The translations under genes were made by a program, and so were the position numbers. From positions 62,001 to 126,000 of the forward strand of contig NZ_CABVQC010000002.1 in NCBI RefSeq assembly GCF_902499175.1: a stretch of DNA of 64,000 bases, in the 5' to 3' direction. The notes below the pieces were generated by a model that was not told the DNA's origin, did not search any database, and was given only the letters and a program-made list of their open reading frames with translations. Source of the stretch: Burkholderia aenigmatica. GTDB lineage: Bacteria > Pseudomonadota > Gammaproteobacteria > Burkholderiales > Burkholderiaceae. Positions within the stretch are counted from its first letter, which is position 1; every line of letters begins with the position of its first letter. Below are positions 9,711 through 23,153 of the stretch, piece after piece.

Positions 9711-9738
9711 AATGTCGATAATGATGAAGACGTCAAAT
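9711..9738 (+). repeat. Left dif-like XerC/XerD attachment site (attL)
   Basis: XerC-type arm AATGTCGATAA, 6-base centre TGATGA, XerD-type arm AGACGTCAAAT. The centre and the last seven bases of the right arm equal those of the right-hand site; the outer bases of the XerD arm are degenerate. This is expected for a hybrid site with a host XerC half and a viral XerD half. Confidence 0.82.
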
Positions 9739-9749
9739 CGCTAATTAAA

Positions 9750-9805
9750 GCTGGTACTACACCTGCGGGACCCAAGCCCCGCAAGCATTAGCGCGAAGTA
9801 CCAGC
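9750..9805. other. Two-tier hairpin next to attL
   Basis: A perfect 9-bp outer stem (GCTGGTACT at 9750-9758 with AGTACCAGC at 9797-9805) encloses an inner 6-bp stem (TGCGGG at 9764-9769 with CCCGCA at 9778-9783, 8-base loop). It begins 12 bases inside the dif-like site and overlaps the 3' end of the repressor gene. It could be a rolling-circle or single-strand origin, a folded attachment structure or the repressor's transcription terminator. Confidence 0.5.
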
Positions 9806-10086
9806 GTGCGAAAACCCGCTGAAAATTTTTCCAAAGCACGCGTCCAAACGGCGCGTCGCGCCTCGTCCGTGCTGCGTTCGATTTTGACGTTCGCCAGCAC
9901 CTCAAACGGATCGACGCCGAGGATTTCGGCGACCTGCAGGCATACCTCATCCTCAAACGTCTGACGCCCATTGCGCCATGCGCTCACGCGCTGGCGCGTC
10001 ACGCCTAGAACCTTTGCTGCTGCGTAGTCGGAAGGAAGGTCCAGACGCGCTTTCACCGCGTCCAGCCATTCGATGGTGGTTTTCAT
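9757..10086 (-). CDS. Phage repressor-like HTH protein
   Basis: A 109-residue protein with an N-terminal helix-turn-helix (SDYAAAKVLGVTRQRVSAWRNGRQTF) like those of phage cI, RstR and Cro regulators, followed by a helix VCLQVAEILGVDPFEVLANV found in DUF3693-type phage proteins. The start at 10086 (MKTTIEWLD) has AAGGGG upstream. It is the only leftward gene at the left end and is divergent from all replication and structural genes, so it most probably maintains lysogeny by binding the control region at 10087-10312. Confidence 0.85.
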   Translation of the reverse strand: MKTTIEWLDAVKARLDLPSDYAAAKVLGVTRQRVSAWRNGRQTFEDEVCLQVAEILGVDPFEVLANVKIERSTDEARRAVWTRALEKFSAGFRTLVLRANACGAWVPQV

Positions 10087-10158
10087 GACAGACCCCTTAC
10101 AAATTTGCTGACCCGGCGTCAAGAGTAGACCAACGGTCGGCCTATCACAACGGATTGT

Positions 10159-10178
10159 GTAACCACACGTGTTGTTAC
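10159..10178. promoter_or_regulatory. Candidate operator palindrome
   Basis: A 20-base near-perfect dyad, half-sites GTAACCACAC and GTGTTGTTAC, with 9 of 10 pairs symmetric. It ends two bases before the -35 box of the rightward promoter and lies in the repressor-divergent region, which is where a repressor operator would be expected. Confidence 0.55.
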
Positions 10179-10180
10179 TC

Positions 10181-10210
10181 TTTACATGTCGTGTCTCACA
10201 AGACTATGAT
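10181..10210 (+). promoter_or_regulatory. Candidate sigma-70 promoter for the rightward phage operon
   Basis: TTTACA at 10181-10186 and TATGAT at 10205-10210 with 18 bases between them, directly after the palindrome. It would start transcription near 10217, giving a long leader before the first clear gene at 10485. Confidence 0.6.
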
Positions 10211-10216
10211 CCCGTC

Positions 10217-10438
10217 CAAGCCCGGGGCTGGTGTCCTGACCCCACCGGCGCGCCCTGACGGGGGCGCATCCCGGGCGATTCCCACACGGGACGGGTCAGG
10301 TAGGGGCAGAGCATGCGTAAAGAGCCGTTACAAATTCACCAGGCCGCGCTCGGTGGCTACACCATCGACGGGCCGTACAGAGTTCAGGCGAGAGCGGGCG
10401 AGCGGGGCGGGCTAGTAGCGAAGCCGCCCCGCTTTTTT
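10217..10438 (+). ncRNA. Structured leader/possible short RNA ending at an attenuator
   Basis: From the predicted start near 10217 to the terminator at 10402-10438 the sequence is GC-rich and full of complementary pieces, for example CCTGACCC at 10235-10242 with GGGTCAGG at 10293-10300. If the terminator works, an RNA of about 220 bases would be made, with read-through needed for the phage operon. Whether it acts as an independent RNA is unknown. Confidence 0.35.
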
Positions 10439-10483
10439 GCGTTCCGCCGCCTGGTCGCGCGGCTCTTCCGCTCGGGGGTGTGA
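10313..10483 (+). CDS. Possible 56-residue leader peptide
   Basis: An ATG at 10313 opens a 56-codon frame (starts MRKEPLQIHQ, basic arginine/phenylalanine-rich end) that runs through the terminator and stops at 10481-10483, one base before the next start codon. A weak purine-rich site precedes it. It could be a leader whose translation controls the terminator, or chance. No family recognised. Confidence 0.3.
   Translation: MRKEPLQIHQAALGGYTIDGPYRVQARAGERGGLVAKPPRFFAFRRLVARLFRSGV
10402..10438 (+). terminator. Strong intrinsic terminator upstream of the phage operon
   Basis: A 9-bp perfect GC stem (GCGGGGCGG with CCGCCCCGC), 13-base loop, followed by six T. It stands between the predicted rightward promoter and the first operon gene, so it probably acts as an attenuator rather than an end-of-operon signal. 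Confidence 0.75.
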
Positions 10484-10484
10484 C

Positions 10485-10661
10485 ATGGACGATCTGGAAC
10501 TGCCGGACGACGAGTCACAGGCCTACTGCGACGGCTGGAACGCCTACGGCGAGCAAGCCGATTTCACGATGGGCAACCCCTTCCCGTTCCTGTCGCTCGA
10601 CTATCACGACTGGCAACGCGGCTGGACCGACGCCCAGGCCGACGCATGGGAGGAGTTCTGA
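10485..10661 (+). CDS. RMF-like small phage protein, copy 1
   Basis: A 58-residue acidic protein (starts MDDLELPDD). Its pattern, AYCDGWNAYGE, then NPFPF, then WQRGW, resembles ribosome modulation factor (a short A-x-GY-x-A...NP...W-x-x-GW layout). A second protein of the same type is at 10954-11148. RMF-like proteins dimerise or silence ribosomes; whether this one touches host translation is inference. First gene of the tightly packed early block, two bases before the next gene's start. Confidence 0.7.
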   Translation: MDDLELPDDESQAYCDGWNAYGEQADFTMGNPFPFLSLDYHDWQRGWTDAQADAWEEF

Positions 10662-10662
10662 C

Positions 10663-10860
10663 ATGCAGATGCTCTTCGACGAATCCCTGACCCTCCCCCC
10701 GTTTCCCTGCATCAGCGGCGAATGTGTCGTCGACGACTTCGGAAACCTGGTCGACCCGTATCCATCTGACCGTTGGTTGCTCAGCACCGAACGCTGGTAT
10801 TTCGCGATGGTGGCCTTCGGCCTGCTTGACGCGCAGCTCGGCAACGCGGAGGTGCTTTGA
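10663..10860 (+). CDS. Hypothetical small phage protein
   Basis: A 65-residue protein, starts MQMLFDESLT, that begins one base after the previous stop and ends one base before the next start. It includes a hydrophobic-aromatic helix RWYFAMVAFGLLDAQLG. No family recognised; position suggests an early or regulatory role. Confidence 0.6.
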   Translation: MQMLFDESLTLPPFPCISGECVVDDFGNLVDPYPSDRWLLSTERWYFAMVAFGLLDAQLGNAEVL

Positions 10861-10861
10861 C

Positions 10862-10954
10862 ATGCGCCTGATCCGCTGCCGCCACTGCGGCTCGATGCGC
10901 CGCCCGGGCACCGCCTGCACGCGGTGCCTTCGCCTTTTCGTGTGGGGTGTCTGA
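10862..10954 (+). CDS. 30-residue zinc-ribbon microprotein
   Basis: A 30-residue frame with CRHCG and CTRC separated by eight residues, the pattern of a minimal zinc ribbon. Its stop overlaps the next gene's start (TGATG), and it follows the previous stop by one base, both arguing that it is translated. Likely nucleic-acid or protein binding; function unknown. A similar microprotein is at 11516-11650. Confidence 0.55.
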   Translation: MRLIRCRHCGSMRRPGTACTRCLRLFVWGV

Positions 10955-11148
10955 TGGGCGGACGCATGCTCCCTGACGAAAACCCGCGCTCAACCGGCCT
11001 GACGGCCGATGCGCGCGGCTACGACGGCTTCTACAACGGCCTCGTTCTCGACGACAACCCCCACGAATGGCTCTCCGACGACTGGCACGCATGGCGTGCC
11101 GGCTGGTGCCGCGCCGAAGCGAATTTCAGCGAAGGGGAGGCGTTCTGA
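10954..11148 (+). CDS. RMF-like small phage protein, copy 2
   Basis: A 64-residue protein with GYDGFYNGL, a central NP, and WHAWRAGWCRAE, the same arrangement as the protein at 10485-10661 and like ribosome modulation factor. Overlaps the stop of the zinc-ribbon gene by one base. The duplicated family in one early block suggests a real role in takeover of the host. Confidence 0.7.
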   Translation: MGGRMLPDENPRSTGLTADARGYDGFYNGLVLDDNPHEWLSDDWHAWRAGWCRAEANFSEGEAF

Positions 11149-11150
11149 CG

Positions 11151-11519
11151 ATGACAGGCCCCTCATCCGCTTTCCTCGACCTGGGCTATACCGAGCCCAG
11201 CGAGCCCCGCCCCTCGCGCGCCCGCCGCGCTTCTGCCGTCCCCGTTCCCGTCCATCACGAAACCGCCCCGGGCGACCGCTCGCCCGCTGCGGCCGCGCTG
11301 CGCGCCATGCGCACCGCGATCGATGCGAAGAGGGGCTTCCTGCCGTCCGACCAGGGCGTGCGTGCTGGTGACGATCCGTTCGCCCGCGCGCAGCTCGCAG
11401 TCGCGTACGAGCGGCTTCGCGCGGCCCTGGCGCTCTACAACACCTTCGCGGCCGACCTGGACGTGCCAGGCGCGCGCGCCTTCATTGGCGACGTGGAAGT
11501 GCGGGAGGGCGGCCAGTGA
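11151..11519 (+). CDS. Hypothetical phage protein before Rep
   Basis: A 122-residue protein. The first ~50 residues are rich in Pro, Arg and Ser and look disordered; the rest is helical (ARAQLAVAYERLRAALALYNTFAADL). GGGGAGG precedes the ATG. Its end overlaps a GTG-started zinc-ribbon gene. No family recognised. Confidence 0.65.
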   Translation: MTGPSSAFLDLGYTEPSEPRPSRARRASAVPVPVHHETAPGDRSPAAAALRAMRTAIDAKRGFLPSDQGVRAGDDPFARAQLAVAYERLRAALALYNTFAADLDVPGARAFIGDVEVREGGQ

Positions 11520-11650
11520 CTTCGATCGGTGGGAAATGCCGGCGCTGCGGCGGCCGGTGGCTCAACGCAACCCGGTGCCCGCGCTGCGGCCGCGTCACGC
11601 GCGTGGGCGCGCTCGGCCGCGCCTTCCGGATGGGGAGGCGCGCACCATGA
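11516..11650 (+). CDS. 44-residue zinc-ribbon protein
   Basis: Starts at a GTG that overlaps the preceding stop (GTGA), with GGGAGG a few bases upstream. It carries CRRCG and CPRCG separated by nine residues, a zinc-ribbon, then a basic tail ending at a TGA that overlaps the Rep ATG. The strongly basic composition suggests nucleic-acid binding. Too short for many gene finders, but the overlaps on both sides support it. Confidence 0.6.
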   Translation: MTSIGGKCRRCGGRWLNATRCPRCGRVTRVGALGRAFRMGRRAP

Positions 11651-12957
11651 CCACCCCCGAAAAATTGCCGTCTGGTTTTCTTGGTATAAACGCGAAATCG
11701 ATACACGCTCCCCGCACGCCCAATACCGACGCGGTTTCCCGGGCGAAGGCGAAGGGCCGCCTGCACGATCTGCTGCGCGTCTCCCAGTCGGTCATCTACG
11801 ACCCGGCCGCGGCGAAGGAAACGCAGCACCGCACGTGCTGGTGCCAGCGCGCGCTTACGTCCCCGGGCGAAACGCTCGGCGTGCGGCGCAACGTCGACGG
11901 TTCGGGCGCGAGCCTGGCCGGCGTGTCGACGTGCGGTTCGGTCTGGGCCTGCCCGGTCTGCTCGCTGAAGGTCTGCATGCAGCGCCAGGCCGAAGTGGCT
12001 GACGGCATGAAGGCGCACGTCGGCAACGGCGGTTACGTCTGGCTCATGACGAACACCTTCCCGCACGAAGCGGGCGAGCGGCCGCTGGCCGACATGCTCG
12101 CGCTGCAGGCCAAGGCCATGCAGAAATTCCAGAACTGCCGCACGTACAAGCGGATCCTCGGCAAGGGCGTGCGCGCCGGCTCAATCAAGGCGCTCGAAAT
12201 CACGCTCGGCTCGCACGGCTGGCACCCACACACGCACTCCCTGGTCTTCGCCACGCCCGACGCATTCGGCGACGTGAAGGAAGGCGACACGGGCCGCATG
12301 GCGTCGCGCCTCATCGACGAGCTCAAGCGCGCCTGGTACGAGGCGCTGCTCAAGGTCGGCCTCTGCGAGCCGTCGCAACTGTCCGACGTGCTGGATCACG
12401 GCCTGGACGTGCGCGGCGGCCAGTACGCGGCGGAGTACGTCGCGAAGTTCGGCCGCGACACGAAGTGGGGCCTGTCGCGCGAGCTGACGATGAACGCGGC
12501 GAAGACCGGCGGCGGCCAGAAGGGCGCGCACCCGTTCCAGTTGCTCGAGTGGGCGGCGGCCGGCGACGGGCAAGCGGCCGCGCAATTCCGCGAGTACGTC
12601 ACCGCCTTCACCGGCCGCCGCATGCTGACCTGGACGCCTGGCCTGAAAGCCGCGCTCGGCCTCGACGAGCTGGAGCAATCCGACGAAGAAGCGGCGGCCG
12701 CGCAGTTGCCCGAAGAGGAGGTAGTCGGCGCGATCTCGGCCGCAGACCTGTCGGTGCTCACCGCGCGCAGCATGCTCGGCCGCTTCCTCGCGTTCGTGTC
12801 GGAGTACTGCTACGACCCGGCGACGGCCCAGGCCGACATCGACGACTTCATGGCGTTCGCGCGCGAGCACGAACGCAGGGCGAGCGGCGCGATCAGCGCG
12901 CCGTACTGGAGCGCCCGCACCCGCAAGTTCTATGACCCTGAGGCGGAAGCCAAATGA
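11647..12957 (+). CDS. HUH rolling-circle replication initiator (Rep)
   Basis: A 436-residue protein. A Cys cluster CGSVWACPVC (residues 96-105) typical of plasmid/phage Rep_1-type proteins precedes the metal-binding HUH motif HPHTH (193-197) and the catalytic tyrosine region YAAEYVAKF (260-268). Such enzymes nick one strand of the double-strand origin, become joined to its 5' end and drive rolling-circle replication, as proposed for PM2 P12. Overlaps the zinc-ribbon gene upstream by four bases and a short gene downstream (ATGA). The origin it nicks was not located. Confidence 0.88.
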   Translation: MTTPEKLPSGFLGINAKSIHAPRTPNTDAVSRAKAKGRLHDLLRVSQSVIYDPAAAKETQHRTCWCQRALTSPGETLGVRRNVDGSGASLAGVSTCGSVWACPVCSLKVCMQRQAEVADGMKAHVGNGGYVWLMTNTFPHEAGERPLADMLALQAKAMQKFQNCRTYKRILGKGVRAGSIKALEITLGSHGWHPHTHSLVFATPDAFGDVKEGDTGRMASRLIDELKRAWYEALLKVGLCEPSQLSDVLDHGLDVRGGQYAAEYVAKFGRDTKWGLSRELTMNAAKTGGGQKGAHPFQLLEWAAAGDGQAAAQFREYVTAFTGRRMLTWTPGLKAALGLDELEQSDEEAAAAQLPEEEVVGAISAADLSVLTARSMLGRFLAFVSEYCYDPATAQADIDDFMAFAREHERRASGAISAPYWSARTRKFYDPEAEAK

Positions 12958-13157: not shown

Positions 13158-13205
13158 CGGCACGCGGCCGGCCGACTCCGGCCGCACACCACCGAGAGGA
13201 AGACC

Positions 13206-13586: not shown

Positions 13587-13601
13587 GGGGAGGGCGCACC
13601 C

Positions 13602-13931
13602 ATGTCCGCACCCGGCAAATTCATCGGCACGGTGCCCTGCAAAACGAAGGGCTGCACGCACACCGTTGCGGTCAAGCTGAACAGGGGCGGACGCGCCTAC
13701 GGAAAGTGCGATCGTTGCACGTGCCGATTTGAGTACGACGGCGTTGCGGCCTCCCAGCGCTTCGTGCGCGAGGAAGTGACGCTCCAGGCCGACCCGTACG
13801 ACGAGCACCCCGGGAATCCCGGGGAAACCAAGCCTCCCGGCGGCCCGGAACCGGTCGTCGATCCCCAGAAAACCCAGGAGAAACCGAAGCGGCGCGGGCT
13901 GCTCGACGGCACTCCATTCGCAGGGCTCTGA
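13602..13931 (+). CDS. Zinc-ribbon phage protein
   Basis: A 109-residue protein with a CxxxxC pair near residues 13-18 and a CxxC pair near 37-40 (CKTKGC, CDRC), a beta-ribbon zinc fold. The C-terminal half is proline-rich and probably disordered. GGGGAGG precedes the ATG. Nucleic-acid binding is plausible; function unknown. Confidence 0.65.
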   Translation: MSAPGKFIGTVPCKTKGCTHTVAVKLNRGGRAYGKCDRCTCRFEYDGVAASQRFVREEVTLQADPYDEHPGNPGETKPPGGPEPVVDPQKTQEKPKRRGLLDGTPFAGL

Positions 13932-13933
13932 CC

Positions 13934-14485
13934 ATGATGGACACGCAAGCGCTCGATGCAATCGGGCAGGAAGAGGTGGCCGAGCGCGCGGCGCTCGCCG
14001 ACGAGCAAGTGCAGGCCGACCAGGTCGCGGCAGAGAAAGAGGCCGCATCCATGTCCGATCAGTATTTTTTCGGGCTGAACAAGGCACGCGGCATCGTGCT
14101 CAAGATGCTGCCGGAGTGCTCGGACGACTGGACCGACGACGTGACGCGCGAGCTGGCGGATGCGCTGGCCGACTGCGATGCGTACTACGGCTGGGGCGGC
14201 GTGATGAACGTCATGAAGCATCCGCTGCTGAAGCTGGTGGCGGCGGCCGTGCCGCTCGCATGGAGCCTGGGCTTCGCAATGCGCAACCGGCGCATCCGCG
14301 CGCAGATGGACGCGGCGGCCGCCGGCCCGCGTCATCACGTCGTCGAGGCGCAGCCGGCACCGGCCCAGCCCGGGCAGAACGTCGAGCCGGCACCGGCCAC
14401 GGCGGCACCGCCGCCCCCGCCTGGCCCGGCCGCCTTCGGTACCGATCCCGGTGCGCTGATGGCCGACACGATGGCGGCAGCATGA
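13934..14485 (+). CDS. Membrane protein preceding the packaging ATPase
   Basis: A 183-residue protein with a helical N-terminal part, one transmembrane helix (LLKLVAAAVPLAWSLGFAM, about residues 97-115), a basic stop-transfer end RNRRIR, and a long Ala/Pro-rich tail. It overlaps the ATPase start by four bases. In PM2/PRD1-like phages the ATPase acts with small membrane proteins at one vertex, so a packaging-vertex role is possible but inferred. Confidence 0.65.
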   Translation: MMDTQALDAIGQEEVAERAALADEQVQADQVAAEKEAASMSDQYFFGLNKARGIVLKMLPECSDDWTDDVTRELADALADCDAYYGWGGVMNVMKHPLLKLVAAAVPLAWSLGFAMRNRRIRAQMDAAAAGPRHHVVEAQPAPAQPGQNVEPAPATAAPPPPPGPAAFGTDPGALMADTMAAA

Positions 14486-15132
14486 CGCGGCGTACCGGTA
14501 CGCGGCACGGTGGCATCATCGGCGTGATTGGCCGCTCGCGCTCGGGCAAGGGTGTGTGGATCAAGCGCTACTTTCTCCCGAAGGTGCGCGGCCCGATCCT
14601 GGTCTGGTCGCCGCTCGAAATCTCCCGGCCGGACGACTACGCGGGCGAGATCGGCGGCGAACGCGTCTACACGATCCAGGAGCTCGTGAAGGCGCTGGCC
14701 GCCGGAAAGACGCGCCTGGTGTTCGTGCCATCCCAGGACGATGCCGAGCGCGAAGCGCAGTTCGATCGCTTCTGCAGAATCCTGGAGAATCCCGGGTTCA
14801 AGCGCTGGACCGTGATCGTCGAAGAGCTGATGCTGGTCACGAAGCCGCACAAGGCCCCGACCGCCTGGAAGAGCATGACGACGGCCGGCGCGCACTCGCG
14901 CGAGATGACCCTGATCGGCGTATCGCAGCGGCCCGCCCAGGTCGACAAAGACTTCCTCGGAAACTGCACTGAGATTCACTGTTACGCGGTGTCCAACGTG
15001 GCCGATGCGAAGGTGATGGCCGACGTGCTGTTCGTCGACAAGGCCGAAATCCTCGGCCTGCAGAAGTTCCACTTCATCCATCGCGACGCTGAGAAAGGGG
15101 AGGTCACGACGGGCGTCGTGTCGTACGAGTAG
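14482..15132 (+). CDS. FtsK/HerA (A32-like) genome-packaging ATPase
   Basis: A 216-residue ATPase, the short size of PM2 P9 and PRD1 P9. Walker A is GRSRSGKG at residues 17-24, where the final residue is Gly instead of Ser/Thr; Walker B is VIVEE near 111-115; the SQRP motif near 148-151 is typical of the FtsK/HerA class. These enzymes pump DNA into preformed membrane-containing capsids. It precedes the capsid gene, as in PM2. Zot-like filamentous assembly proteins are the main alternative, but the length, SQRP motif, missing membrane helix and capsid context favour packaging. Confidence 0.85.
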   Translation: MTRRTGTRHGGIIGVIGRSRSGKGVWIKRYFLPKVRGPILVWSPLEISRPDDYAGEIGGERVYTIQELVKALAAGKTRLVFVPSQDDAEREAQFDRFCRILENPGFKRWTVIVEELMLVTKPHKAPTAWKSMTTAGAHSREMTLIGVSQRPAQVDKDFLGNCTEIHCYAVSNVADAKVMADVLFVDKAEILGLQKFHFIHRDAEKGEVTTGVVSYE

Positions 15133-15161
15133 CGTCGAAACAACGTTTTTTGCAGGCCCGG

Positions 15162-15259: not shown

Positions 15260-15433
15260 GTGTCCCTCTCCGCCTACCTGCCATCGAAACACCGGCTCGC
15301 CCAGGAAGTCATCGCGACGACAGTCGGCGTCCTGGTCGCGGCCTGGATCATTTCCAAGTGGCCGGCCGCGAAGAAGCTGGTCGACGGCAACACGATCTGG
15401 TCCACGTCGCAATCTGACTTTCCCACTTCCTGA
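15260..15433 (+). CDS. 57-residue membrane protein (GTG start)
   Basis: A frame starting at GTG 15260 encodes 57 residues with one transmembrane helix (EVIATTVGVLVAAWIIS) and a basic flank KWPAAKK. It ends seven bases before the next start codon. No good ribosome site is visible for the GTG, so the start is uncertain. Likely a virion membrane protein. Confidence 0.5.
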   Translation: MSLSAYLPSKHRLAQEVIATTVGVLVAAWIISKWPAAKKLVDGNTIWSTSQSDFPTS

Positions 15434-15440
15434 GGTCCTT

Positions 15441-15607: not shown

Positions 15608-16462
15608 ATGCGCAAAGAGCAACTCGTCAACCTGCAGAACGTCAACCCGGGGCAGACCGCGCTTCTGGCGGTCCCGTGCGGCCCGACGTTCGAGCGGATC
15701 AAGCTGTACCTCGCCAACGGCCTGCTGATCTCGCATCTCGACCTGATCACGATCAAGCAAAACGGCAAGCCCATTTGGGCCGTGAACGGCAACGACCTGC
15801 TCGCACAGAACCTGTACGAGGGCAAGCCGAACCCGACCACCGTCGCGCTGCTCGACTTCACCCGCCGTGGCGCGAAGAGCTCGGCGACGAAGAACAGCTC
15901 GGGCGTCGTGATCCAGTCGACGCAGGTTCAGGAAGAGCTGTTCACGTGCTTGGCGACCGCCGGCCTGCAGCAGTGCACGATGGAAATCAAGATCAACGCG
16001 AGCGCGCCGGCTGGCATCGGTATGACGGCCTGGGCGCAAGAAAGCGACCCGTCGAAGAACCCGTGGGTGTTCAAGGAACAGTCGGCGACCTATGCGCTGA
16101 TGACGGTCGGCCAGAACGATATCGCGCTGCCCGTGCAGCAAGCCGGTTCGGTCATCACCAAGATCTACCTGCACCAGTCGAACTACGGCCAGGCCGGCGC
16201 GGGCTCGATCCAGTCGATCCAGATCCGCAACAACCAGGTGATCATTTCCGAAGGCACGCCGCAGGTGTACCAGGACGATCAGACCGACTACCAGAAGGTG
16301 CCGCAGCCTGGTCTGTTCGTCGTCGACTTCGATCTCCAGGGCATGCGCGAGAAGTGGCTCAACACGACGCTGTCGAAGAACGTGTTCATCCGCGTCGTGA
16401 CGCAGACCGGGCCGGTGTTCCTGACGGGCTACGCCAAGATCGTCGACCCGATCAACCGCTAA
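15608..16462 (+). CDS. Major capsid protein, PM2 P2-like double jelly roll
   Basis: A 284-residue protein, close to PM2 P2 (about 270). The N-terminal region has the same pattern as P2: a stretch ending in VPCGPTFERIKLYLANG, a beta run LDLITIKQNGKPIWAVNG, then LLAQNLYEG; a second beta-rich half follows (ALMTVGQNDIALPV, YLHQSNYGQAG, FVVDFDLQGMREKWLNTTL). No signal peptide or Lys-rich scaffold. AGGAG stands before the ATG. Two beta barrels per chain would form pseudo-hexameric trimers around an inner membrane. The assignment is by pattern; a structure prediction or a profile search would be decisive. Confidence 0.83.
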   Translation: MRKEQLVNLQNVNPGQTALLAVPCGPTFERIKLYLANGLLISHLDLITIKQNGKPIWAVNGNDLLAQNLYEGKPNPTTVALLDFTRRGAKSSATKNSSGVVIQSTQVQEELFTCLATAGLQQCTMEIKINASAPAGIGMTAWAQESDPSKNPWVFKEQSATYALMTVGQNDIALPVQQAGSVITKIYLHQSNYGQAGAGSIQSIQIRNNQVIISEGTPQVYQDDQTDYQKVPQPGLFVVDFDLQGMREKWLNTTLSKNVFIRVVTQTGPVFLTGYAKIVDPINR

Positions 16463-16478: not shown

Positions 16479-16928
16479 ATGGCGCTGTATGACTTCTCCC
16501 TCGACGGAACCGGCATCGATTCCGGTTCGGTTGACCCGAGTGGGGCGGATGCGTCGACGCTGTACGGGATCTATGGTCCCGACTCGACGAATTCGAACTA
16601 CACGTACACGACCGCACCGGACACGTCGAACAACACGAGCGTGCCGTCCACGCTGGGCCAGATGCAGACGAACGGCAGCACCGATTCGAGCGGTTCGAAC
16701 GGCGCGCTGTGGCTGTCGGGCTTCCAGTCGCTGCTCGGCGCGGCCGTGGCCGGCGATGCGATCGCGAACGGCCTGACGGCCCAGGGCACCGTGCCGGTCT
16801 ACCGCGCGCCGAACGGGACGACGTATCCGGTCGGCACCGGGCCGAGCCTGACGCGCGGCAACGGCATGGGCATGCTGCTGTTGATCGGCCTGTTCGTGCT
16901 GCTGCTCGATCACGAAGGGGGCCACTGA
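16479..16928 (+). CDS. Ser/Thr/Gly-rich virion membrane protein
   Basis: A 149-residue protein with a long polar Ser/Thr/Asn/Gly-rich N-terminal part and a single C-terminal transmembrane helix (MGMLLLIGLFVLLLD) just before the end. GGGAGG precedes the start. Probably anchored in the inner virion membrane with the polar part reaching the capsid shell. Stop overlaps the next start (TGATG). Confidence 0.65.
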   Translation: MALYDFSLDGTGIDSGSVDPSGADASTLYGIYGPDSTNSNYTYTTAPDTSNNTSVPSTLGQMQTNGSTDSSGSNGALWLSGFQSLLGAAVAGDAIANGLTAQGTVPVYRAPNGTTYPVGTGPSLTRGNGMGMLLLIGLFVLLLDHEGGH

Positions 16929-17194: not shown

Positions 17195-17196
17195 CC

Positions 17197-17568
17197 ATGC
17201 GGCCGGCGACGCGCGACGAGATCGCGCGCATGTTCGCGCCCGTCGACCGCTGGATGACAACGGAAGAGGGCGCGGCCGCGTGCGCGGCAAAGGGTGATTG
17301 CTTCGTGCTCGAGCAAGACGGCGTGCCCGTGCTTGCCTGGTCGCTGAAGGTCGACGGCGACGAGCTGTTCATCCAGGCGGCGGCCGGCCGCGCTGGTTTC
17401 GACCTGACCGAGTTCGGGCTCGCGCTCGTCGAACGCCAGGCGGACGGCTTCCGGTCGATCGCCTTCCGCACGCGCCGGCGCGGCCTCATGAAAAAAGCTA
17501 TCGACAACGGCTACTACCCTGCCTGGCGCAAGGGCGACGTCGTGCTGATGCGAAAGGATCTGCGATGA
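17197..17568 (+). CDS. GNAT-like phage protein
   Basis: A 123-residue soluble protein (MRPATRDEIARMF start) with a beta-alpha pattern, CFVLEQDGVPVLAWSLKVDG then LFIQAAAGR and GFRSIAFRTRRRGLMKKAIDNGYYP, resembling an acetyltransferase fold as in several phage proteins with unknown targets. Two bases after the previous gene; overlaps the next by four bases. Catalytic competence unclear. Confidence 0.5.
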   Translation: MRPATRDEIARMFAPVDRWMTTEEGAAACAAKGDCFVLEQDGVPVLAWSLKVDGDELFIQAAAGRAGFDLTEFGLALVERQADGFRSIAFRTRRRGLMKKAIDNGYYPAWRKGDVVLMRKDLR

Positions 17569-18110
17569 TTTTTCGTCCACAACAACTCCACCTGGTACGC
17601 CTCGGCCTGCCGGCTACGCCGTGCAACGGCGGTAGTTCGAGCAGCTCGGACAAGACCAGCAACCAGAACGTCGACCAGCGGCTTGATGTCGGTGGCGGCG
17701 GTGTCGGCGCGACCGCATCGAGCGGCGGCTCGGTCAACATCAACGTCACGCCGACCGACCAGGGCTCTGTGGCCGCGTCGTTCGGTCTCGCGCACGACGC
17801 GCTGAATGACGTGACGGCGATCGGCACGTCGTCCGTGAGCGCGAGCGCGCACACGGCCGAGCTCGCAATCAACGGCGCGCTCGACAGCGTGCAGGGCGCA
17901 CAGGACGCGTTCAACAAGGCGACGACGGCCGTCGCGAACGCCTACCAGAATGCCGGCCAGCAAGCGGCCGACGCGCAGCAAAGCGCCACGTCGGCCATCA
18001 CGGCCGCGTACCAGGACGCGAAGACCGGCAACCAACGCGTCATCGTCATCGGCGCGCTCGTCGTCGTCGGCCTGGTCGTGCTCGCTCCGGTGTTCAAGGA
18101 AGCCGCGTAA
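17565..18110 (+). CDS. Virion membrane protein with repetitive helical stalk
   Basis: A 181-residue protein: a Ser/Gly-rich N-terminal third, a long Ala/Ser/Gln-rich helical middle (AQDAFNKATTAVANAYQNAGQQ) and a C-terminal membrane helix (VIVIGALVVVGLVVLAPVF). It looks like a tethered stalk and could anchor the spike proteins that follow. Stop overlaps next start (TAATG). Confidence 0.62.
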   Translation: MIFRPQQLHLVRLGLPATPCNGGSSSSSDKTSNQNVDQRLDVGGGGVGATASSGGSVNINVTPTDQGSVAASFGLAHDALNDVTAIGTSSVSASAHTAELAINGALDSVQGAQDAFNKATTAVANAYQNAGQQAADAQQSATSAITAAYQDAKTGNQRVIVIGALVVVGLVVLAPVFKEAA

Positions 18111-18850
18111 TGCAGACCCTCACCACGAAGCTGTATGCCGGCCAGCGGATGCCGTTCAAGATCGCGGGCTCGGTGCTGTTCATCCAGTCCGCCGACCAGG
18201 GACAGAACCTGGTCGTTCGCTTCTTCACGGGCAACGCGCAAAGCGGCGAGGTCGACCAGGTCGGTGCATCGTTCAAGGCGAAGCCGCCGACGCCGTTCGA
18301 CGGTATCGACATGCTCGCGCCGGTCGACACGAACGTGACGTTCATCATCGCGGACGGCGACATTGATTTTCAGTTGCCAGGCATCGGCGTGATCGTGACC
18401 AACTCGGGCACGAATCCAGTGCCCGTGGAGATCGTCAGCGAACCAGGTGCGCCGTTCCCGGTCACGATCACCGGCCCCGTCACGGTAACGGGCGCAACGC
18501 TGACGGCGACGAACGTCGGCATCAACAACACGACGGCGAACCCCGTGCCGGTGTTGCCCATGCAGGCATCCACCATCACGGACGCGGCACCGCAAGCGGT
18601 GGCCGCTTTCACTTCCGGCACGCCGAACCAGGTGCATATCCGTGCGGCCGGCGCGTGCCGGTCGCTGCGCATCAGCAACCCGGCTGCATCGGCCGGCAAG
18701 CTCTTCATTGGCGGGGCGGGTGTCACGCCGACGAACGCCGTGATCGTGCTGCTGCCGGGTGACGTATGGAATGAAACGGACGCGCCGCAGGTCGACTGGT
18801 ACGCGACGAGCGACACGGGCGCAACCGCAAACATGCAGGTGATTGCATGA
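18110..18850 (+). CDS. Beta-rich virion protein, probably spike/vertex
   Basis: A 246-residue, almost entirely beta-strand protein without membrane segment. Regular Thr/Val strands (TITGPVTVTGATLTAT) and a C-terminal jelly-roll-like region (GKLFIGGAGVTPTNAVIVLLPGD) suggest a penton, spike stalk or spike-adaptor domain. Placed directly before the beta-helix protein and overlapping it by four bases, so the two likely form one spike. Confidence 0.6.
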   Translation: MQTLTTKLYAGQRMPFKIAGSVLFIQSADQGQNLVVRFFTGNAQSGEVDQVGASFKAKPPTPFDGIDMLAPVDTNVTFIIADGDIDFQLPGIGVIVTNSGTNPVPVEIVSEPGAPFPVTITGPVTVTGATLTATNVGINNTTANPVPVLPMQASTITDAAPQAVAAFTSGTPNQVHIRAAGACRSLRISNPAASAGKLFIGGAGVTPTNAVIVLLPGDVWNETDAPQVDWYATSDTGATANMQVIA

Positions 18851-20331
18851 GCGGGCGGATCTCGATTTTTCCGTGGGCCAAGCTCAAGACCGTGGTGGAT
18901 TCCGTCGCGGCATTGCGCACGCTGTCGAAGACGATCTACAACAATGCCTTCACGACCGGCTACTACGCGGCGAACGATGGAGCGGCCGGTGCGTTCCGGC
19001 TCGATCCGACCGACACGACCAGCGCCGACAACGGCGGCACGATCATCGTCGCGGCGGACGGCGGCCGATGGAAAAAGCTTATCGTCGGCAAGATGGTGTG
19101 CGCGTCGGAGTTCGGCGTGGTCATGGATGGCCGCGACAACACGGCAGCGAGTAAGGCGGCCATCGCAGCGGCGTCCGCGTCGAACGAATTCAAGACCATC
19201 TATTACGGGCCCGGAACCACCCAGGTATCGGATACGCTGACCATCCAGAGCGAAGGTGTCCGGCTGATCGGTGCCGGCGGAGGTGGCGTGCATGACAACG
19301 CACCGGTGATCAACGCGCTCACGCGGTTCATCTGGACGGGTGCGAGCGGCGGCACGTGCGTGAAGATCCAGCCCGACCCGGCCACGTCGAATCAGTGGGT
19401 AGCCGACAACGGTATCGAGGGCATCTTCTTCGACGGTAACAACGCGCTCGGCGGCATCGCCGTGAACCTCGTAGCTTGCCGCTACGGCGATTACGACATT
19501 CGCGCGGGCCACTGGAAAACCACGTTCGTCCAGATGGACGTGAACGCGACGACCGCCGAGAACGGCGACTGCTCGGGCAACCGGTTCAGGGCGATTGCGG
19601 GATACCAGTCGAATGCGGCCGATGGCTCGTTCCTCATCTGCAACAGCAACGCGAGCTATAACTGCTGCTGGAACCAATACGAGCTGATCGAGGGCAATTG
19701 GCTTGCGTCGCCGATGGTGATCCTCAACGGCAACGACAACGAGAAATTCTTCACGGTCAACGGATACAACCCGACTCCGAATGTCGCGGTGTACGGGATC
19801 GTGTGCAATGGCGGGCCGGCGTTCCTGCAGACCACTCGACACCTGACCTTCTATCACGTCTCAACGACGGCGAACGGCGGTGGCGGTGTGTACGCCCAGG
19901 GTACGGATCACGCGACGGATGCAGCCTACGCGATCAACATCCTCTATTACGACATCGACAACAACCAAGCGCCGCCGGTGACGGGGCCCGGTGCGTCGAT
20001 CTGGTGGGGGACCAACAATGCACCGTCCGGAAAGCAGGGCTTCTTCTTCACGTCGCCACCCGGCTACGAGGAAATCGACTCGGCCGGAAAGATCGCGCTC
20101 GCGGGCACGATGAAAATCGCCTCGGGGCAGACGGCGGGCACGCTCACGTTCCCGACGTTCCCCGGCAAGTCGAGTGCAGGCTTCCCAACCGAAATTTCGA
20201 ACGTGCAGGTCACGCCGTCCACCGCGCCCATCATCGTCTCGGCGTACGCGTCGCAAACGACGCTCACGGTCACGGCATCGGCCCCTGTTCCGCAGGATAT
20301 CTACATTTATTACAAGGTCGAGGGCCGGTGA
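18847..20331 (+). CDS. Tailspike-like beta-helix receptor-binding protein
   Basis: A 494-residue protein. After a short ~90-residue head, the region EFGVVMDGRDNTAASKAAIAAA and IYYGPGTTQVSDTLTI is the typical entry of a pectate-lyase/tailspike right-handed beta helix, followed by many short strands with Gly/Asn turns and a beta C-terminal domain. Such proteins bind or depolymerise surface polysaccharide in tailed phages. It lies in the virion block next to a beta-rich stalk, so it probably is the host-recognition spike of this tailless particle. Enzyme activity is not proven by sequence. Confidence 0.72.
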   Translation: MSGRISIFPWAKLKTVVDSVAALRTLSKTIYNNAFTTGYYAANDGAAGAFRLDPTDTTSADNGGTIIVAADGGRWKKLIVGKMVCASEFGVVMDGRDNTAASKAAIAAASASNEFKTIYYGPGTTQVSDTLTIQSEGVRLIGAGGGGVHDNAPVINALTRFIWTGASGGTCVKIQPDPATSNQWVADNGIEGIFFDGNNALGGIAVNLVACRYGDYDIRAGHWKTTFVQMDVNATTAENGDCSGNRFRAIAGYQSNAADGSFLICNSNASYNCCWNQYELIEGNWLASPMVILNGNDNEKFFTVNGYNPTPNVAVYGIVCNGGPAFLQTTRHLTFYHVSTTANGGGGVYAQGTDHATDAAYAINILYYDIDNNQAPPVTGPGASIWWGTNNAPSGKQGFFFTSPPGYEEIDSAGKIALAGTMKIASGQTAGTLTFPTFPGKSSAGFPTEISNVQVTPSTAPIIVSAYASQTTLTVTASAPVPQDIYIYYKVEGR

Positions 20332-20990
20332 TGAGTGCGGCACCTTTCCTTGTGCTCGTCGCTGGTGCGGCCGCGCTGCTCTACATGCAGCCGAGTAGCG
20401 CGAACGTCGCACCGACTGATTCGGGCGACTCGGGCGGAACAACGGACCCGGGATTTTCTGACCTGCTCGGAAGCGCATCCAGCGCGTGGAGCGATTTAAA
20501 CGGAACGGTGAATACTATGCTTGGCACGGCTGACAATCCGAACTACAACGGCTACGACGCGAACCTGTCCGCGTTCCTGTACATGCTGCGCATGGCTGAG
20601 TCGAACAACCGATACAACGTGATCAATGGCGGCCGCACGTTCAACGACTACAGCCGCCATCCGGATATCGGCGTTCCGATCCCGTGGCGACCGGGCAAGG
20701 TCAGCACGGCGGCCGGCGCGTATCAGTTCATCTTCAGCACCTGGAACCAGGTCGCGGCGGAGGCGGGGCTCTCGGACTTCTCCCCGCAAAGCCAGGATGC
20801 CGGCGCGGTGCAATACCTCTCCGACCTGGGCGCACTACCGTACATCGAAGCGGGAGATCTGAACGGCGCGTATGCGCAGATCAACTCGACCGGCGTCATC
20901 TTCGAGAGCCTGCCGAACGCACAGGGGCATAACCGTAGCCCCTCGCAACTGCAGGCGTGGTATCAGGCGGCTGGGGGTGCGCTCGCATGA
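20331..20990 (+). CDS. Membrane-anchored lytic transglycosylase (lambda R-like)
   Basis: A 219-residue protein with an N-terminal membrane helix (PFLVLVAGAAALLYM) and a C-terminal lysozyme-fold domain (from ~residue 75). It has the lambda endolysin (GH104)-type pattern: catalytic Glu90 in RMAESNN, then GGRTFNDYSRHP and TAAGAYQF with a following TW. It could locally open peptidoglycan during entry, like virion-associated P7 of PRD1, and/or help lysis. Its membrane anchor and place in the virion block favour a virion role. Overlaps the spike gene by one base. Confidence 0.82.
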   Translation: MSAAPFLVLVAGAAALLYMQPSSANVAPTDSGDSGGTTDPGFSDLLGSASSAWSDLNGTVNTMLGTADNPNYNGYDANLSAFLYMLRMAESNNRYNVINGGRTFNDYSRHPDIGVPIPWRPGKVSTAAGAYQFIFSTWNQVAAEAGLSDFSPQSQDAGAVQYLSDLGALPYIEAGDLNGAYAQINSTGVIFESLPNAQGHNRSPSQLQAWYQAAGGALA

Positions 20991-21313
20991 AAGACACGGC
21001 CAACAACCTCGCGCTCGGGCTCGGCGTCGCGGTGCTCGGCTTCGCGCTTTACCGCTATTTCAAGGGGCAGGCCGGCGCGACACCGACGTCGACGGTCACG
21101 AACGCGCCGGCAAGCGGTGGCGGTGCGACCTGGTCGCTGCTGAACTTCGGTGGCTCGACTGACGGCCCGACGCCGCTCGCCGTCGACAACCCGTACGCCT
21201 CGACGGCATGGAACCCGGACGCGTTGAGCGGGAACATGTCGGCAGACCTGAGCGCCGCACTCGCCAAAGCCGGCGAGGCCGGCATCAACAACTGGGGCTT
21301 CACGCTGCCATGA
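20987..21313 (+). CDS. Single-pass virion membrane protein
   Basis: A 108-residue protein with an N-terminal membrane helix (LALGLGVAVLGFALYRYF) and a Gly/Ser/Thr/Pro-rich remainder. Overlaps the transglycosylase stop (ATGA) and is itself overlapped by the next gene. No family recognised. Confidence 0.62.
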   Translation: MKDTANNLALGLGVAVLGFALYRYFKGQAGATPTSTVTNAPASGGGATWSLLNFGGSTDGPTPLAVDNPYASTAWNPDALSGNMSADLSAALAKAGEAGINNWGFTLP

Positions 21314-21720
21314 GTCTCAAAGCGAACGCTGCGGGGCTCGCAATCGGTGCGGGCGTGATCCTGGTCGGCCTTGCCTACGTGAAGCGTGGCGCAATCGTCG
21401 CGTCGGCCGGCCAGGTCGTAAGCAACGTCGACGGCGCGCTGACCGGCGCGGTGCTGCAGATCCCGGGCGCATCCGCGCTGACCGATCCGGCGACGGGCGA
21501 CTTCAACCCGGCGGCCGCCGGCTACGCGAGCGGCCAGGCCACGCGTGATTGGCTCGGCCAACAGTGGACCGGTGTGAAGAACTGGTTCACGACTGCCGGC
21601 ACGTCGCCCGACCCGACATTCGACACCGGCAACAGTGCAGGGTGGGGCGGCGGCACCAATGAGGTATCACCGGGAAACGGTGCGGCGCCGACCGATTTCG
21701 GCAACTTCCTTTCGTTGTGA
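21310..21720 (+). CDS. Single-pass virion membrane protein
   Basis: A 136-residue protein with an N-terminal membrane helix (AAGLAIGAGVILVGLAYV) and a helical/Gly-rich remainder containing WLGQQWTGVKNWF. Same architecture as its upstream neighbour, with which it overlaps by four bases. Confidence 0.62.
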   Translation: MSLKANAAGLAIGAGVILVGLAYVKRGAIVASAGQVVSNVDGALTGAVLQIPGASALTDPATGDFNPAAAGYASGQATRDWLGQQWTGVKNWFTTAGTSPDPTFDTGNSAGWGGGTNEVSPGNGAAPTDFGNFLSL

Positions 21721-21735
21721 CACCAGGAGAAAACC

Positions 21736-21945
21736 ATGTCCATTCTCGATCGGCTCGGCGAACCGAGCACGCACGCCGGCATCGGCGTACTCGCAACGGC
21801 GGCGTCGACGGCCGCCATCCAGCTCGGTGCGAACCCGACGAAGGTCGGCGCAATCGCTGCCATCCTGCAGGCGCTGTTCGGCCTGTTCGCGGTGTTCGTG
21901 CCCGACAGCGCGTCGACGCCGCCGGCCGGCCCGACCGGCCAATAA
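21736..21945 (+). CDS. Holin-like small membrane protein
   Basis: A 69-residue protein with two hydrophobic stretches (GIGVLATAASTAAIQLG and VGAIAAILQALFGLFAVFV) separated by a short polar turn and a short Pro-rich tail. Size and layout fit a phage holin that forms lysis pores. AGGAGA lies before the ATG. Confidence 0.6.
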   Translation: MSILDRLGEPSTHAGIGVLATAASTAAIQLGANPTKVGAIAAILQALFGLFAVFVPDSASTPPAGPTGQ

Positions 21946-21982
21946 CGAGCGGGCCGCTCACGGCCGCACGGGGGAAGCACAC

Positions 21983-22150
21983 GTGACCAACGAAACCCTG
22001 TTGCCGATGCTCGTCTCGGCGGTCTTGAATGCGGCCGTTACGTGGGGGGTGGTCAAAACGCAGCTCGCATGGCTGCGCCGCGACGTCGATTCGCTGCTGA
22101 AAATCCGAGACGCGCTTCTCGCGCAAGTCCTCAAACTGCAAGGAGAATGA
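21983..22150 (+). CDS. 55-residue membrane/coiled-coil protein (GTG start)
   Basis: A GTG-started frame with GGGGGAAG upstream. It has one short hydrophobic helix (MLVSAVLNAAVTWGVV) followed by a charged helix (LRRDVDSLLKIRDALLAQVLKL), as in small inner-membrane lysis accessory proteins. Ends three bases before the 22-residue basic peptide. Confidence 0.55.
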   Translation: MTNETLLPMLVSAVLNAAVTWGVVKTQLAWLRRDVDSLLKIRDALLAQVLKLQGE

Positions 22151-22153
22151 CCT

Positions 22154-22222
22154 ATGTCGAAGCACCACAAGCGCCGTACGCCGGCGCGCGACAGCAAAGG
22201 CCGCTTCCGCCGCCGGAAGTGA
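22154..22222 (+). CDS. 22-residue basic peptide
   Basis: AAGGAG precedes the ATG, and the 22-codon frame (MSKHHKRRT start, RFRRRK end) has 11 Lys/Arg and 2 His. It is the last gene before the operon's terminator. A protamine-like or DNA-condensing role is possible. Too short for gene finders; support comes from the ribosome site and its fit in the gap. Confidence 0.45.
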   Translation: MSKHHKRRTPARDSKGRFRRRK

Positions 22223-22241
22223 AACGCCAGGCATGGAAGTG

Positions 22242-22269
22242 AAAAAGCCCCGGGAAACCGGGGCTTTTT
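22242..22269. terminator. Terminator at the end of the virion operon
   Basis: A perfect 12-bp stem (left arm AAAAAGCCCCGG) with a GAAA tetraloop and five T. Because it is A-rich on one side and T-rich on the other it can act for both the rightward operon and the leftward gene that ends at 22271. Confidence 0.85.
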
Positions 22270-22270
22270 G

Positions 22271-22693
22271 TTAGAACGCACCTCCCTGAGAGATGCACGA
22301 TATGTCGACGAACTCATGGCCTCGACGCCGTATTCCTGATGGCGCTGACTGCGCGCGGCTTCCCTGGACTAGGGAATTGCCGGTCGCCTGCGTGCCTTCG
22401 ATCGTCACGCCGTACATTCTGGGCGGAGGTGTGCCGGGAACACGCGGGAACAGCGTCGAGTTGTGCTCGAAGCCAAACACAGCGACGACGGGCAAGCCAT
22501 TGAACGTGATCCCACGGCGCGGCGGATAGTAGGCGAGATCGGAGACCAGCGGGCGTCGATTCGCGGCCGCTTCCGCGCGCACGAACGAGATAGCCCCGTC
22601 GAAAACGTTGCAACTGAGTATCGGGTACGACAAATCCTCGGCGTGCGCGGAAAGGCACATGACGGCGAGCATGGCGGCAACTGCGGTTTTCAA
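22271..22693 (-). CDS. Secreted phage-borne protein (TTG start)
   Basis: A 140-residue protein with a signal peptide (KTAVAAMLAVMCLSAHA then EDLSY). The TTG at 22693 is preceded by AGGAG at a good distance and gives a compact signal sequence; an in-frame ATG further upstream would put polar residues in front of it. The mature part holds two Cys (SCNVFDG, DISCISQ) that could pair. Leftward, opposite to the lytic genes, so it may be made in the lysogen. No family recognised. Confidence 0.55.
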   Translation of the reverse strand: MKTAVAAMLAVMCLSAHAEDLSYPILSCNVFDGAISFVRAEAAANRRPLVSDLAYYPPRRGITFNGLPVVAVFGFEHNSTLFPRVPGTPPPRMYGVTIEGTQATGNSLVQGSRAQSAPSGIRRRGHEFVDISCISQGGAF

Positions 22694-22719
22694 GGTGGTC
22701 TCCTGTTGATCGCGCGCCA

Positions 22720-23001
22720 TTATGCAACGATCCGTAGGTGCGGCCGCTCGCGCATTGGAGTCTCGAGACTTGACGGCTTCCAGGCATTGAAGGCGAAGCG
22801 CAGCCGGGTCGCGTCGCGCTCGACCGCACGTAATCGGAGAATCTCCGGTGCCCACCAGGGTACGCGTTGCCGGCCGGAAAGCCAGTCGTCGACGCTGCGC
22901 TCGCTGCGGCGCAGCTCGCGCGCGACGTCGGCGACCGTCCGGCCGTTCATGTAGTAGCGGAATTCGTCAGGCTTCCCGTATCGCAGGTTTGGGTATCGCA
23001 T
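22720..23001 (-). CDS. Phage HTH DNA-binding protein
   Basis: A 93-residue protein with a helix-turn-helix (TVADVARELRRSERSVDDWLSGRQRVPWWAPEILRL). This NP..R..W..VPWW type occurs in short regulators of filamentous and other Burkholderia phages. It is the last gene before the right attachment site and points toward the secreted-protein gene. It may control that gene or help excision; which is unknown. Confidence 0.7.
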   Translation of the reverse strand: MRYPNLRYGKPDEFRYYMNGRTVADVARELRRSERSVDDWLSGRQRVPWWAPEILRLRAVERDATRLRFAFNAWKPSSLETPMRERPHLRIVA

Positions 23002-23015
23002 CGTTCTTTTTGTCC

Positions 23016-23042
23016 GAAAAAAAAGCCGGGGAATCCCGGCTT
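23016..23042 (-). terminator. Terminator at the prophage right end
   Basis: AAGCCGGG paired with CCCGGCTT around a 4-base loop, followed on the minus strand by eight T. It would stop transcription entering the element from the right. Confidence 0.7.
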
Positions 23043-23125
23043 CGGCATGGTGTGACTGGGTCGTTACAGCTTCTTTAATCGGATAATTGGATCACTTTTG
23101 GGGTCTGATTCAGTTCCGCGATTTA

Positions 23126-23153
23126 AACGTCGATAATGATGATTATGTCAAAT
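23126..23153 (+). repeat. Right dif-like XerC/XerD attachment site (attR)
   Basis: XerC-type arm AACGTCGATAA, centre TGATGA, XerD-type arm TTATGTCAAAT. The XerD arm matches that of E. coli dif in 10 of 11 bases. Left XerC arm plus this XerD arm would restore the host dif site; this XerC arm plus the left site's XerD arm would be the viral attP. Confidence 0.85.

What the first reader, a model, noticed from the sequence alone, without database searches (positions are those of the whole stretch)
9711..23153. A PM2-like (corticovirus-type) tailless membrane phage integrated in a Burkholderia chromosome
The sequence directly shows: a PM2 P2-patterned 284-residue capsid protein; a 216-residue FtsK/HerA-type ATPase; an HUH Rep; about ten single-pass membrane proteins; a membrane-anchored transglycosylase; and the absence of any terminase, portal, tail tube, tape measure or integrase. 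Established knowledge: this is the core set of PM2-like and related double-jelly-roll phages, which carry an internal membrane and of which few isolates exist, mostly aquatic. Inference: this is an intact, probably inducible, lysogenic member from a soil/clinical Burkholderia lineage.
Basis: partly seen in the sequence, partly recalled or inferred. Interest (0 to 1): 0.95.

Follow-up and report, generated by a model that had tools for sequence, protein, structure and literature searches.

The report
Tailless membrane prophage at Burkholderia dif
A 13.4-kb block of this Burkholderia chromosome encodes a tailless phage related to the marine phage PM2, whose capsid protein is predicted to fold like PM2's; the block lies between two copies of the chromosome's own dif site, so the phage likely inserted itself by borrowing the bacterium's chromosome-separating recombinases.

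The parts
9711..9738 (+). attL: dif-like site, host-type XerC arm AATGTCGATAA, centre TGATGA, decayed XerD arm AGACGTCAAAT
   Evidence: XerC arm identical to the genome's other dif on contig C39
9757..10086 (-). HTH repressor-like regulator, like PM2 gp c (its name P16 is recalled)
   Evidence: HTH_3 6.6e-7, phrog_4441 3.1e-34, family profile vs PM2 gp c 4.7e-15
10488..11519 (+). several small ORFs of unknown function before the Rep
   Evidence: ORFs; two of them (10957-11148, 11145-11519) found in L002 at 86% and 100%
11647..12957 (+). Rep, HUH rolling-circle initiator of the Rep_1 family, nearest in phage records to inoviruses
   Evidence: Rep_1 4e-9; PMBT54 30%, blackswan219-6 36%; HPHTH motif
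13602..13931 (+). 109-aa Cys-rich protein in the place of transcription factor P14
   Evidence: similar to PE002B gene 9 (E 5e-4); no significant match to PM2 P14 itself (E 3.1)
13934..14485 (+). 183-aa membrane protein in the place of ORF h (assembly factor)
   Evidence: position and one hydrophobic segment; similarity weak (PG21 gene before the ATPase, E 0.13)
14482..15132 (+). packaging ATPase, P9-like
   Evidence: NO16 ATPase 1.8e-26, PM2 P9 2.2e-17; phrog_2666 3.9e-18
15260..15433 (+). 57-aa membrane protein in the place of P7
   Evidence: kept in all four Burkholderia relatives (67-93%); PM2 P7 E 0.019
15608..16462 (+). major capsid protein, predicted double jelly roll of the PM2 P2 type
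16479..16928 (+). P3-like membrane protein
   Evidence: NO16 gene 18 E 0.0021, hydrophobic segment
16928..17194 (+). P8-like membrane protein
   Evidence: PE002B gene 15 E 5.8e-4
17197..17568 (+). GNAT-like acetyltransferase kept in vinaviruses
   Evidence: PE002B gene 16 E 1.6e-4; Livvievirus acyltransferase E 5.9e-4
17565..18110 (+). P10/gp j-like membrane protein
   Evidence: PE002B gene 17 (noted as PM2 Gp-j) E 2.8e-4
18110..18850 (+). P1-like penton/spike base
   Evidence: Livvievirus gene 17 E 3.2e-6; Jorvik P1 E 0.031
18847..20331 (+). tailspike-like protein, likely receptor-binding; exchangeable cassette
   Evidence: phrog_17640 tail fiber 3e-17; no counterpart in L002, whose homology stops at 18850 and resumes at 20331
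20331..20990 (+). membrane-anchored lambda-lysozyme-like lysin
   Evidence: 1am7/3d3d E 2e-19, phrog_90 endolysin 1.9e-25, N-terminal hydrophobic segment
20987..22150 (+). four small proteins, three with a hydrophobic segment over the cut-off (late structural or holin-like)
   Evidence: hydropathy; three of four found in relatives
22271..22720 (-). accessory gene with a signal-peptide-like start (by eye), not found in L002-L006
22720..23001 (-). small HTH protein
   Evidence: HTH_28 1.1e-4, below Pfam's cut-off, phrog_10187 2.6e-9, 69% to L002
23126..23153 (+). attR: complete dif site, centre TGATGA
   Evidence: matches the dif pattern with 0 mismatches

Best explanation
[quoted passage not shown] Predicted steps: the phage carries a one-armed attP (good XerC arm, centre TGATGA, decayed XerD arm), as reported for the filamentous phage TLCphi; recombination with the host dif leaves an intact dif at the downstream end (attR) and a half-decayed one next to the repressor (attL). 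In the lysogen the gp c-like regulator would keep the rightward operons quiet. After excision the Rep_1 protein would start rolling-circle replication; P2-like capsid protein, P1-like pentons and small membrane proteins would build a membrane-lined shell that the P9-like ATPase fills; the lambda-lysozyme-like lysin and small membrane proteins would lyse the cell; the exchangeable tailspike would decide which cells are bound. Shown: gene content, capsid fold by prediction, dif pair, flanks, recurrence in relatives. Inferred: every dynamic step.
For: Capsid. Gene order and best matches at the expected places in Vinavirales genomes: against the annotated genomes; same order in Jorvik. dif pair with identical centre; no simulated window of 100 reached the lower score. 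The arms that face the chromosome (attL XerC arm, attR XerD arm) are identical to the arms of the genome's other dif. Chromosomal dif: GGGNAGGG motifs 6 forward, 0 reverse to the left and 1 forward, 9 reverse to the right of the element on contig C2 (Fisher p 0.0009); dif sites with centres one base away (TTATGA, TGTTGA) lie on 3.3-3.8 Mb contigs of six relatives. Flanks: left flank 86% identical over 6.9 kb to a relative with an unoccupied dif, ending 350 bp before that dif; right flank beyond 26,425 is the sequence that begins about 70-85 bp after dif in two relatives. Recurrence: same-centre pairs in 10 of 13 loci, control 5 of 200.
Against: No virion, excision or circular form was shown. 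An extra 3.3 kb (23154-26425) lies between attR and the conserved right flank; relatives also vary there (about 0.07-0.2 kb in three, 0.8 kb in one, 3.6-3.8 kb in three), so the site has a further history that I cannot explain. Three of 13 loci showed no pair (L006 Vibrio, L100, L101), L101 being a marginal hallmark match (E 9.8e-4). GC skew changes only from about 0 to -0.039. PM2 P14, ORF h and P7 counterparts rest mostly on position, and matches near E 1e-3 are borderline: an unrelated small ORF reached 0.0039. GGGNAGGG is the E. coli FtsK motif (recalled), not proven for Burkholderia; that 3.3-3.8 Mb contigs are chromosome 1 is recalled.
Confidence: 0.87

Rival explanations
1. The element is a decayed, no longer mobile prophage remnant, kept because its right end now supplies the chromosome's dif.
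For: One att arm is decayed; an unexplained 3.3-kb stretch lies beside attR; no free virus close to it in phage records or viral contigs.
Against: The element genes translated are open (one small frame was set wrongly by me and dropped); it is about 85% identical to L002 over 8 kb with coding capacity kept; a weak arm at that end is seen in all nine other loci with a pair, so it is the normal state, not damage.
Confidence: 0.12
2. The block is a filamentous-phage or plasmid-derived island that picked up a capsid-like gene, since Rep is inovirus-like and the site is dif.
For: Rep_1 is nearest to inovirus Reps; filamentous phages use dif (PMC4246890, passages).
Against: No inovirus coat or assembly gene among the 20 scanned ORFs (a Zot-like family only at E 0.16); the structural operon follows vinavirus order; L003-L005 keep that operon with a Phage_GPA Rep instead, so the Rep is the exchanged part.
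Confidence: 0.02
3. It is a true corticovirus (family Corticoviridae).
For: Best structural match is PM2 P2; the regulator matches PM2 gp c.
Against: Capsid tree puts it outside the PM2, NO16 and Autolykiviridae groups with 100/100 support, though the tool warned of long branches; Rep not similar to P12 (E 0.63); lysin lambda-like, without a match to P5.
Confidence: 0.04

Closest known systems
Pseudoalteromonas phage PM2 (Corticoviridae)
   Different: Capsid identity about 20%, Rep not similar, lambda-like lysin, extra tailspike gene, GNAT present, 13.4 kb instead of 10.1 kb, chromosomal dif prophage
Autolykiviridae (Vibrio phage 1.249.A, Livvievirus)
   Same: Best capsid match among phage records (28%), P1-like match E 3e-6, same GNAT position
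   Different: Autolykivirus has a type B DNA polymerase and putative terminal protein; here Rep_1
Asemoviridae (Vibrio phage NO16)
   Same: dif-like sites and proposed XerCD integration (PMC9966536, abstract and passages); closest ATPase match
   Different: Capsid clade, Rep, spike, lysin; host
Mestraviridae (Rhodobacter phage Jorvik)
   Same: Order P7, P2, P3, P8, acetyltransferase, P10, P1, transglycosylase; XerCD proposed, no integrase (PMC10589892, passages)
   Different: Capsid protein not significantly similar (E 0.087); attB variable in place; different Rep
Betaproteobacterial Vinavirales 'clade D' (PMC9502842, sections 15 and 16 read, other passages) and the 2007 Ralstonia eutropha H16 element (PMC1950889, passages)
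   Same: PM2-like prophages in betaproteobacteria; lysozyme-like lysins; replication-gene exchange
   Different: Sequences of clade D were not available here, so whether this clade is part of it is open; that paper calls the integration of Vinavirales prophages other than one group unclear
TLCphi (filamentous satellite, Vibrio cholerae)
   Same: attP with good XerC arm and centre and degenerate XerD arm (PMC4246890, passages)
   Different: Unrelated virus; here some relatives have the XerC arm decayed instead
Burkholderia tectivirus BCE1
   Same: Tectiliviricetes phage of Burkholderia (PMC12388082, passages)
   Different: Classed as Alphatectivirus (order Kalamavirales), not Vinavirales

Membership tests
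[quoted passage not shown]
Vinavirales (order) | P9-type packaging ATPase upstream of the capsid gene | tested here: met
Vinavirales (order) | P1-type spike/penton protein | tested here: met
   E 3.2e-6 to Livvievirus gene 17 at the same place; PM2 P1 itself not among its best five
Vinavirales (order) | P3, P8, GNAT, P10 in order between capsid and spike | tested here: met
   best matches at the expected places, E 1.6e-4 to 2.1e-3 in a 94-protein set; each borderline alone
Vinavirales (order) | P16-type regulator (PM2 gp c; identity of the names recalled) | tested here: met
   E 4.7e-15 to PM2 gp c
Vinavirales (order) | ORF h, P7 and P14 counterparts | tested here: inconclusive
   position fits, similarity weak
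Vinavirales (order) | icosahedral virion with internal membrane | not testable with these tools
   needs particles
Corticoviridae | capsid protein in the PM2 clade | tested here: not met
Corticoviridae | P12-type Rep and P5-type lysin | tested here: not met
Autolykiviridae | family B DNA polymerase replication | tested here: not met
   none in the 20 ORFs scanned; Rep_1 instead
Autolykiviridae | capsid protein in the family's clade | tested here: not met
Asemoviridae | capsid protein in the NO16/PG21 clade | tested here: not met
Mestraviridae | capsid and ATPase in the Jorvik clade | tested here: not met
   ATPase tree and capsid BLAST; Jorvik was not in the capsid tree
Parnassusviridae | capsid protein near phage MfV | not tested
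   record not held
Clade D of PMC9502842 | capsid protein in that clade | not testable with these tools
XerCD-dif integrated elements (IMEX) | flanked by dif-like sites with a shared centre at a chromosomal dif | tested here: met
XerCD-dif integrated elements (IMEX) | recombination depends on host XerC and XerD | not testable with these tools
   needs xer mutants

The most novel reading that the evidence does not exclude
Vinavirales of the Burkholderiaceae include an unclassified, family-level lineage of temperate membrane phages that live at the replication terminus: each carries an attP in which the half facing its repressor has decayed, whichever Xer arm that is, so that lysogeny hands the chromosome back one working dif downstream of the capsid genes, and the prophage becomes part of the host's own chromosome-dimer-resolution site. 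Close sisters match different chromosomes through different att centres, and exchange Rep and spike as cassettes; in many relatives the capsid protein itself bears a chitin-binding-like module.
Probability: 0.5. Interest if true: 0.72.

Novelty: new variant of a known kind. Interest (0 to 1): 0.58.

Why it matters
A 2022 survey of the order states that the integration mechanisms of Vinavirales prophages, one group apart, remain unclear (PMC9502842); later papers propose XerCD for NO16 and Jorvik. Here hybrid arms, matched centres, motif polarity and recurrence give a concrete model that can be tested: a membrane phage lineage that occupies the dif site and gives it back. It also shows tailless membrane phages as recurrent residents of Burkholderia (5 of 65 genomes), where the passages read of a 2025 phage review list one tectivirus outside the tailed phages, and gives a natural experiment in which spike and Rep change on a constant capsid.

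Tried and rejected
Looked for a close free phage: none in phage records by DNA, none in viral contigs with one protein or with alignment A1. ATPase against the PDB: best was STIV B204 at E 0.15, too weak to use alone. Rep against the PDB: nothing. NCBIfam named none of the core proteins given; PADLOC gave only weak matches; Rfam none; no tRNA in the window, so no tRNA attachment site. Promoter and terminator scans were no better than shuffles. A direct-repeat search alone could not single out the att sites among at least 60 families; the dif model did. I considered filamentous-phage, plasmid-island and decayed-remnant readings (see rivals). In the capsid tree 48 of the 120 listed relatives (152 passed the threshold) were used, plus 16 others; the tool warned of long branches, so the deep order among families is not used, only the separate clade. 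PDB match by alignment A2 is not counted, because A2 contains PM2. Profiles had one to five rows each.

The count of loci with a dif pair uses 13 loci: the window, L002-L006, L095-L101. The control used order-1 simulated sequence from eight of them, 25 each, and asked for a same-strand, same-centre partner anywhere in 20 kb.
Full report

GENE ORDER. Profiles built from the window's proteins and up to four Burkholderia counterparts each were searched against 94 proteins of PM2, NO16, PG21, GXT1010, PE002B and Livvievirus. Best matches fall at the expected places: left-end regulator to PM2 gp c (4.7e-15); ATPase to NO16 (1.8e-26) and PM2 P9 (2.2e-17); capsid to Livvievirus (4.6e-17), GXT1010, NO16, PM2 and PG21; first membrane protein to NO16 gene 18 (2e-3); second to PE002B gene 15 (6e-4); acetyltransferase-like to PE002B gene 16 (1.6e-4) and the annotated acyltransferase of Livvievirus (6e-4); next to PE002B gene 17, noted as PM2 Gp-j (2.8e-4); P1-like to Livvievirus gene 17 (3.2e-6). 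Values near 1e-3 are borderline alone: a small ORF before the Rep matched NO16 gene 13 at 0.0039 without sense. Counterparts of ORF h, P7 and P14 rest on position. The same order is annotated in Jorvik, whose proteins match by sequence for the ATPase (3.5e-6) and weakly for P1 (0.031), not otherwise. The lysin matches lambda lysozyme (2e-19) and starts with a hydrophobic segment, in line with the report that betaproteobacterial vinaviruses use T4lyz-like lysins (PMC9502842, section read).

FAMILY. A capsid tree of 64 rows groups the window with 36 others: the other four Burkholderia loci and 32 database proteins. Five of these 32 bear an organism name, all Burkholderia (B. perseverans, B. arboris, B. 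ubonensis, B. pseudomallei, Burkholderia sp.). Support is 100/100 on a long branch, apart from Corticoviridae, Asemoviridae, Autolykiviridae and two other Burkholderiaceae sequences. The five loci also group in an ATPase tree (98/100). ICTV's 2025 list has five families in the order (PMC12451628, passages); three are in the capsid tree, Mestraviridae was compared by BLAST and ATPase, Parnassusviridae was not held. The capsid gene occurs in 5 of 65 genomes of the genus and 10 of 398 of the family sample, the 5 included and one of the 10 marginal; the ATPase in 7 of 65.

INTEGRATION. The published dif sites of the two B. mallei chromosomes have the same outer type of arms and other centres (PMC2731167, passages). 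The dif pattern was found in 27 of 65 genus genomes at up to one mismatch, with no hit for the reversed control. The window's genome has one more, on contig C39, with centre TTCACG. The outer arms of the pair (left XerC, right XerD) equal the arms of that C39 dif exactly; the inner arms would be the phage's. That is what a crossover inside dif would leave. On the 253,628-bp contig, GGGNAGGG motifs point towards the site from both sides (6:0 left, 1:9 right, 1:2 in the element; p 0.0009 for the flanks). Centres TTATGA and TGTTGA, one base from TGATGA, belong to dif sites on 3.3-3.8 Mb contigs of six relatives, by size chromosome 1. The left flank aligns for 6.9 kb (86%) to a relative without the prophage and stops 350 bp from its dif; the right flank beyond 26,425 aligns to sequence that starts about 70-85 bp after dif in two relatives, and 0.2-3.8 kb after it in five more. 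So the site is a dif neighbourhood with the 13.4-kb element plus an unexplained 3.3 kb.

A RULE IN RELATIVES. Searching 13 loci for two same-strand dif-like sites with the same centre around the hallmark gene gave a pair in 10; simulated sequence gave a partner in 5 of 200. Centres differ between elements (TGATGA, TTCACG three times, TTATGA, ATCACC, TTGAGA, TCTATC, TTTATG, TTTATC) but agree within each pair, by the search's own demand. In these 10 the better-preserved dif is at the downstream end of the capsid operon (for L095 and L096 judged from the ATPase gene). The upstream site has a weak phage-side arm: XerD in the window, L002, L003, L096; XerC in L004, L005, L095, L098, L099; unclear in L097. 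TLCphi has the first type (PMC4246890, passages). I infer that decay of the repressor-side half is selected or tolerated because it does not touch the dif that is handed back, or because it slows excision. The sister pair window and L002 share a capsid at 91% yet have different centres, TGATGA and TTCACG, fitting different chromosomes.

WHAT IS NEW. Not the kind: PM2-like prophages in betaproteobacteria (PMC9502842, PMC10589892, PMC1950889) and XerCD use (PMC9966536, PMC10589892) are in print. Searches that joined double jelly-roll, PM2 or corticovirus words with Burkholderia gave no paper; a wider search (66 papers, 30 listed) showed none on this lineage by title; a search for carbohydrate- or chitin-binding with double jelly-roll capsids listed one paper, on cellular homologues (listing only). 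New here, as far as these searches reach, are the lineage's anatomy, the evidence for dif, the att rule and the capsid insert. What remains inferred: excision, replication mode, virion, receptor role.

Noticed in passing
L004 and L005 10001-10993; P0005, P0010-P0017 and others: About 50-aa CBM5/12-like (chitin-binding-like) insert in the second jelly roll of the capsid protein in 21 of 34 clade relatives by length; absent in the window. A capsid protein with its own sugar-binding module would be unusual.
   Followed up: partly
23154-26425: Extra 3.3 kb between attR and the conserved chromosomal flank, GC 60.5%, with a Zn-ribbon-like ORF, a DUF2938 membrane protein (8.5e-44) and an ORF that looks GNAT-like by eye only; no dif-like site at its far end.
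   Followed up: partly
9567-9710 and L002 4232-4373, L040, L041, L044, L053: About 150 bp just left of dif is similar at several Burkholderia dif sites, also at those with other centres.
   Followed up: no
22271-22720 (-): Accessory gene with a signal-peptide-like start (by eye), no family, not found in L002-L006; candidate lysogenic-conversion gene.
   Followed up: partly
L088/L095 (G059) and L089/L096 (G048): Two more Burkholderia genomes hold a divergent vinavirus-type ATPase (38-39% identity) flanked by dif-like pairs, without a match to this capsid profile: a second lineage.
   Followed up: partly
23022-23043 (-): Nine-pair stem with T-run on the minus strand just outside the small HTH gene, which could shield the prophage from host transcription; the scan as a whole was no better than shuffles.
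   Followed up: no
P0022: A clade member (51% identity) is annotated in Burkholderia pseudomallei; described only.
   Followed up: no
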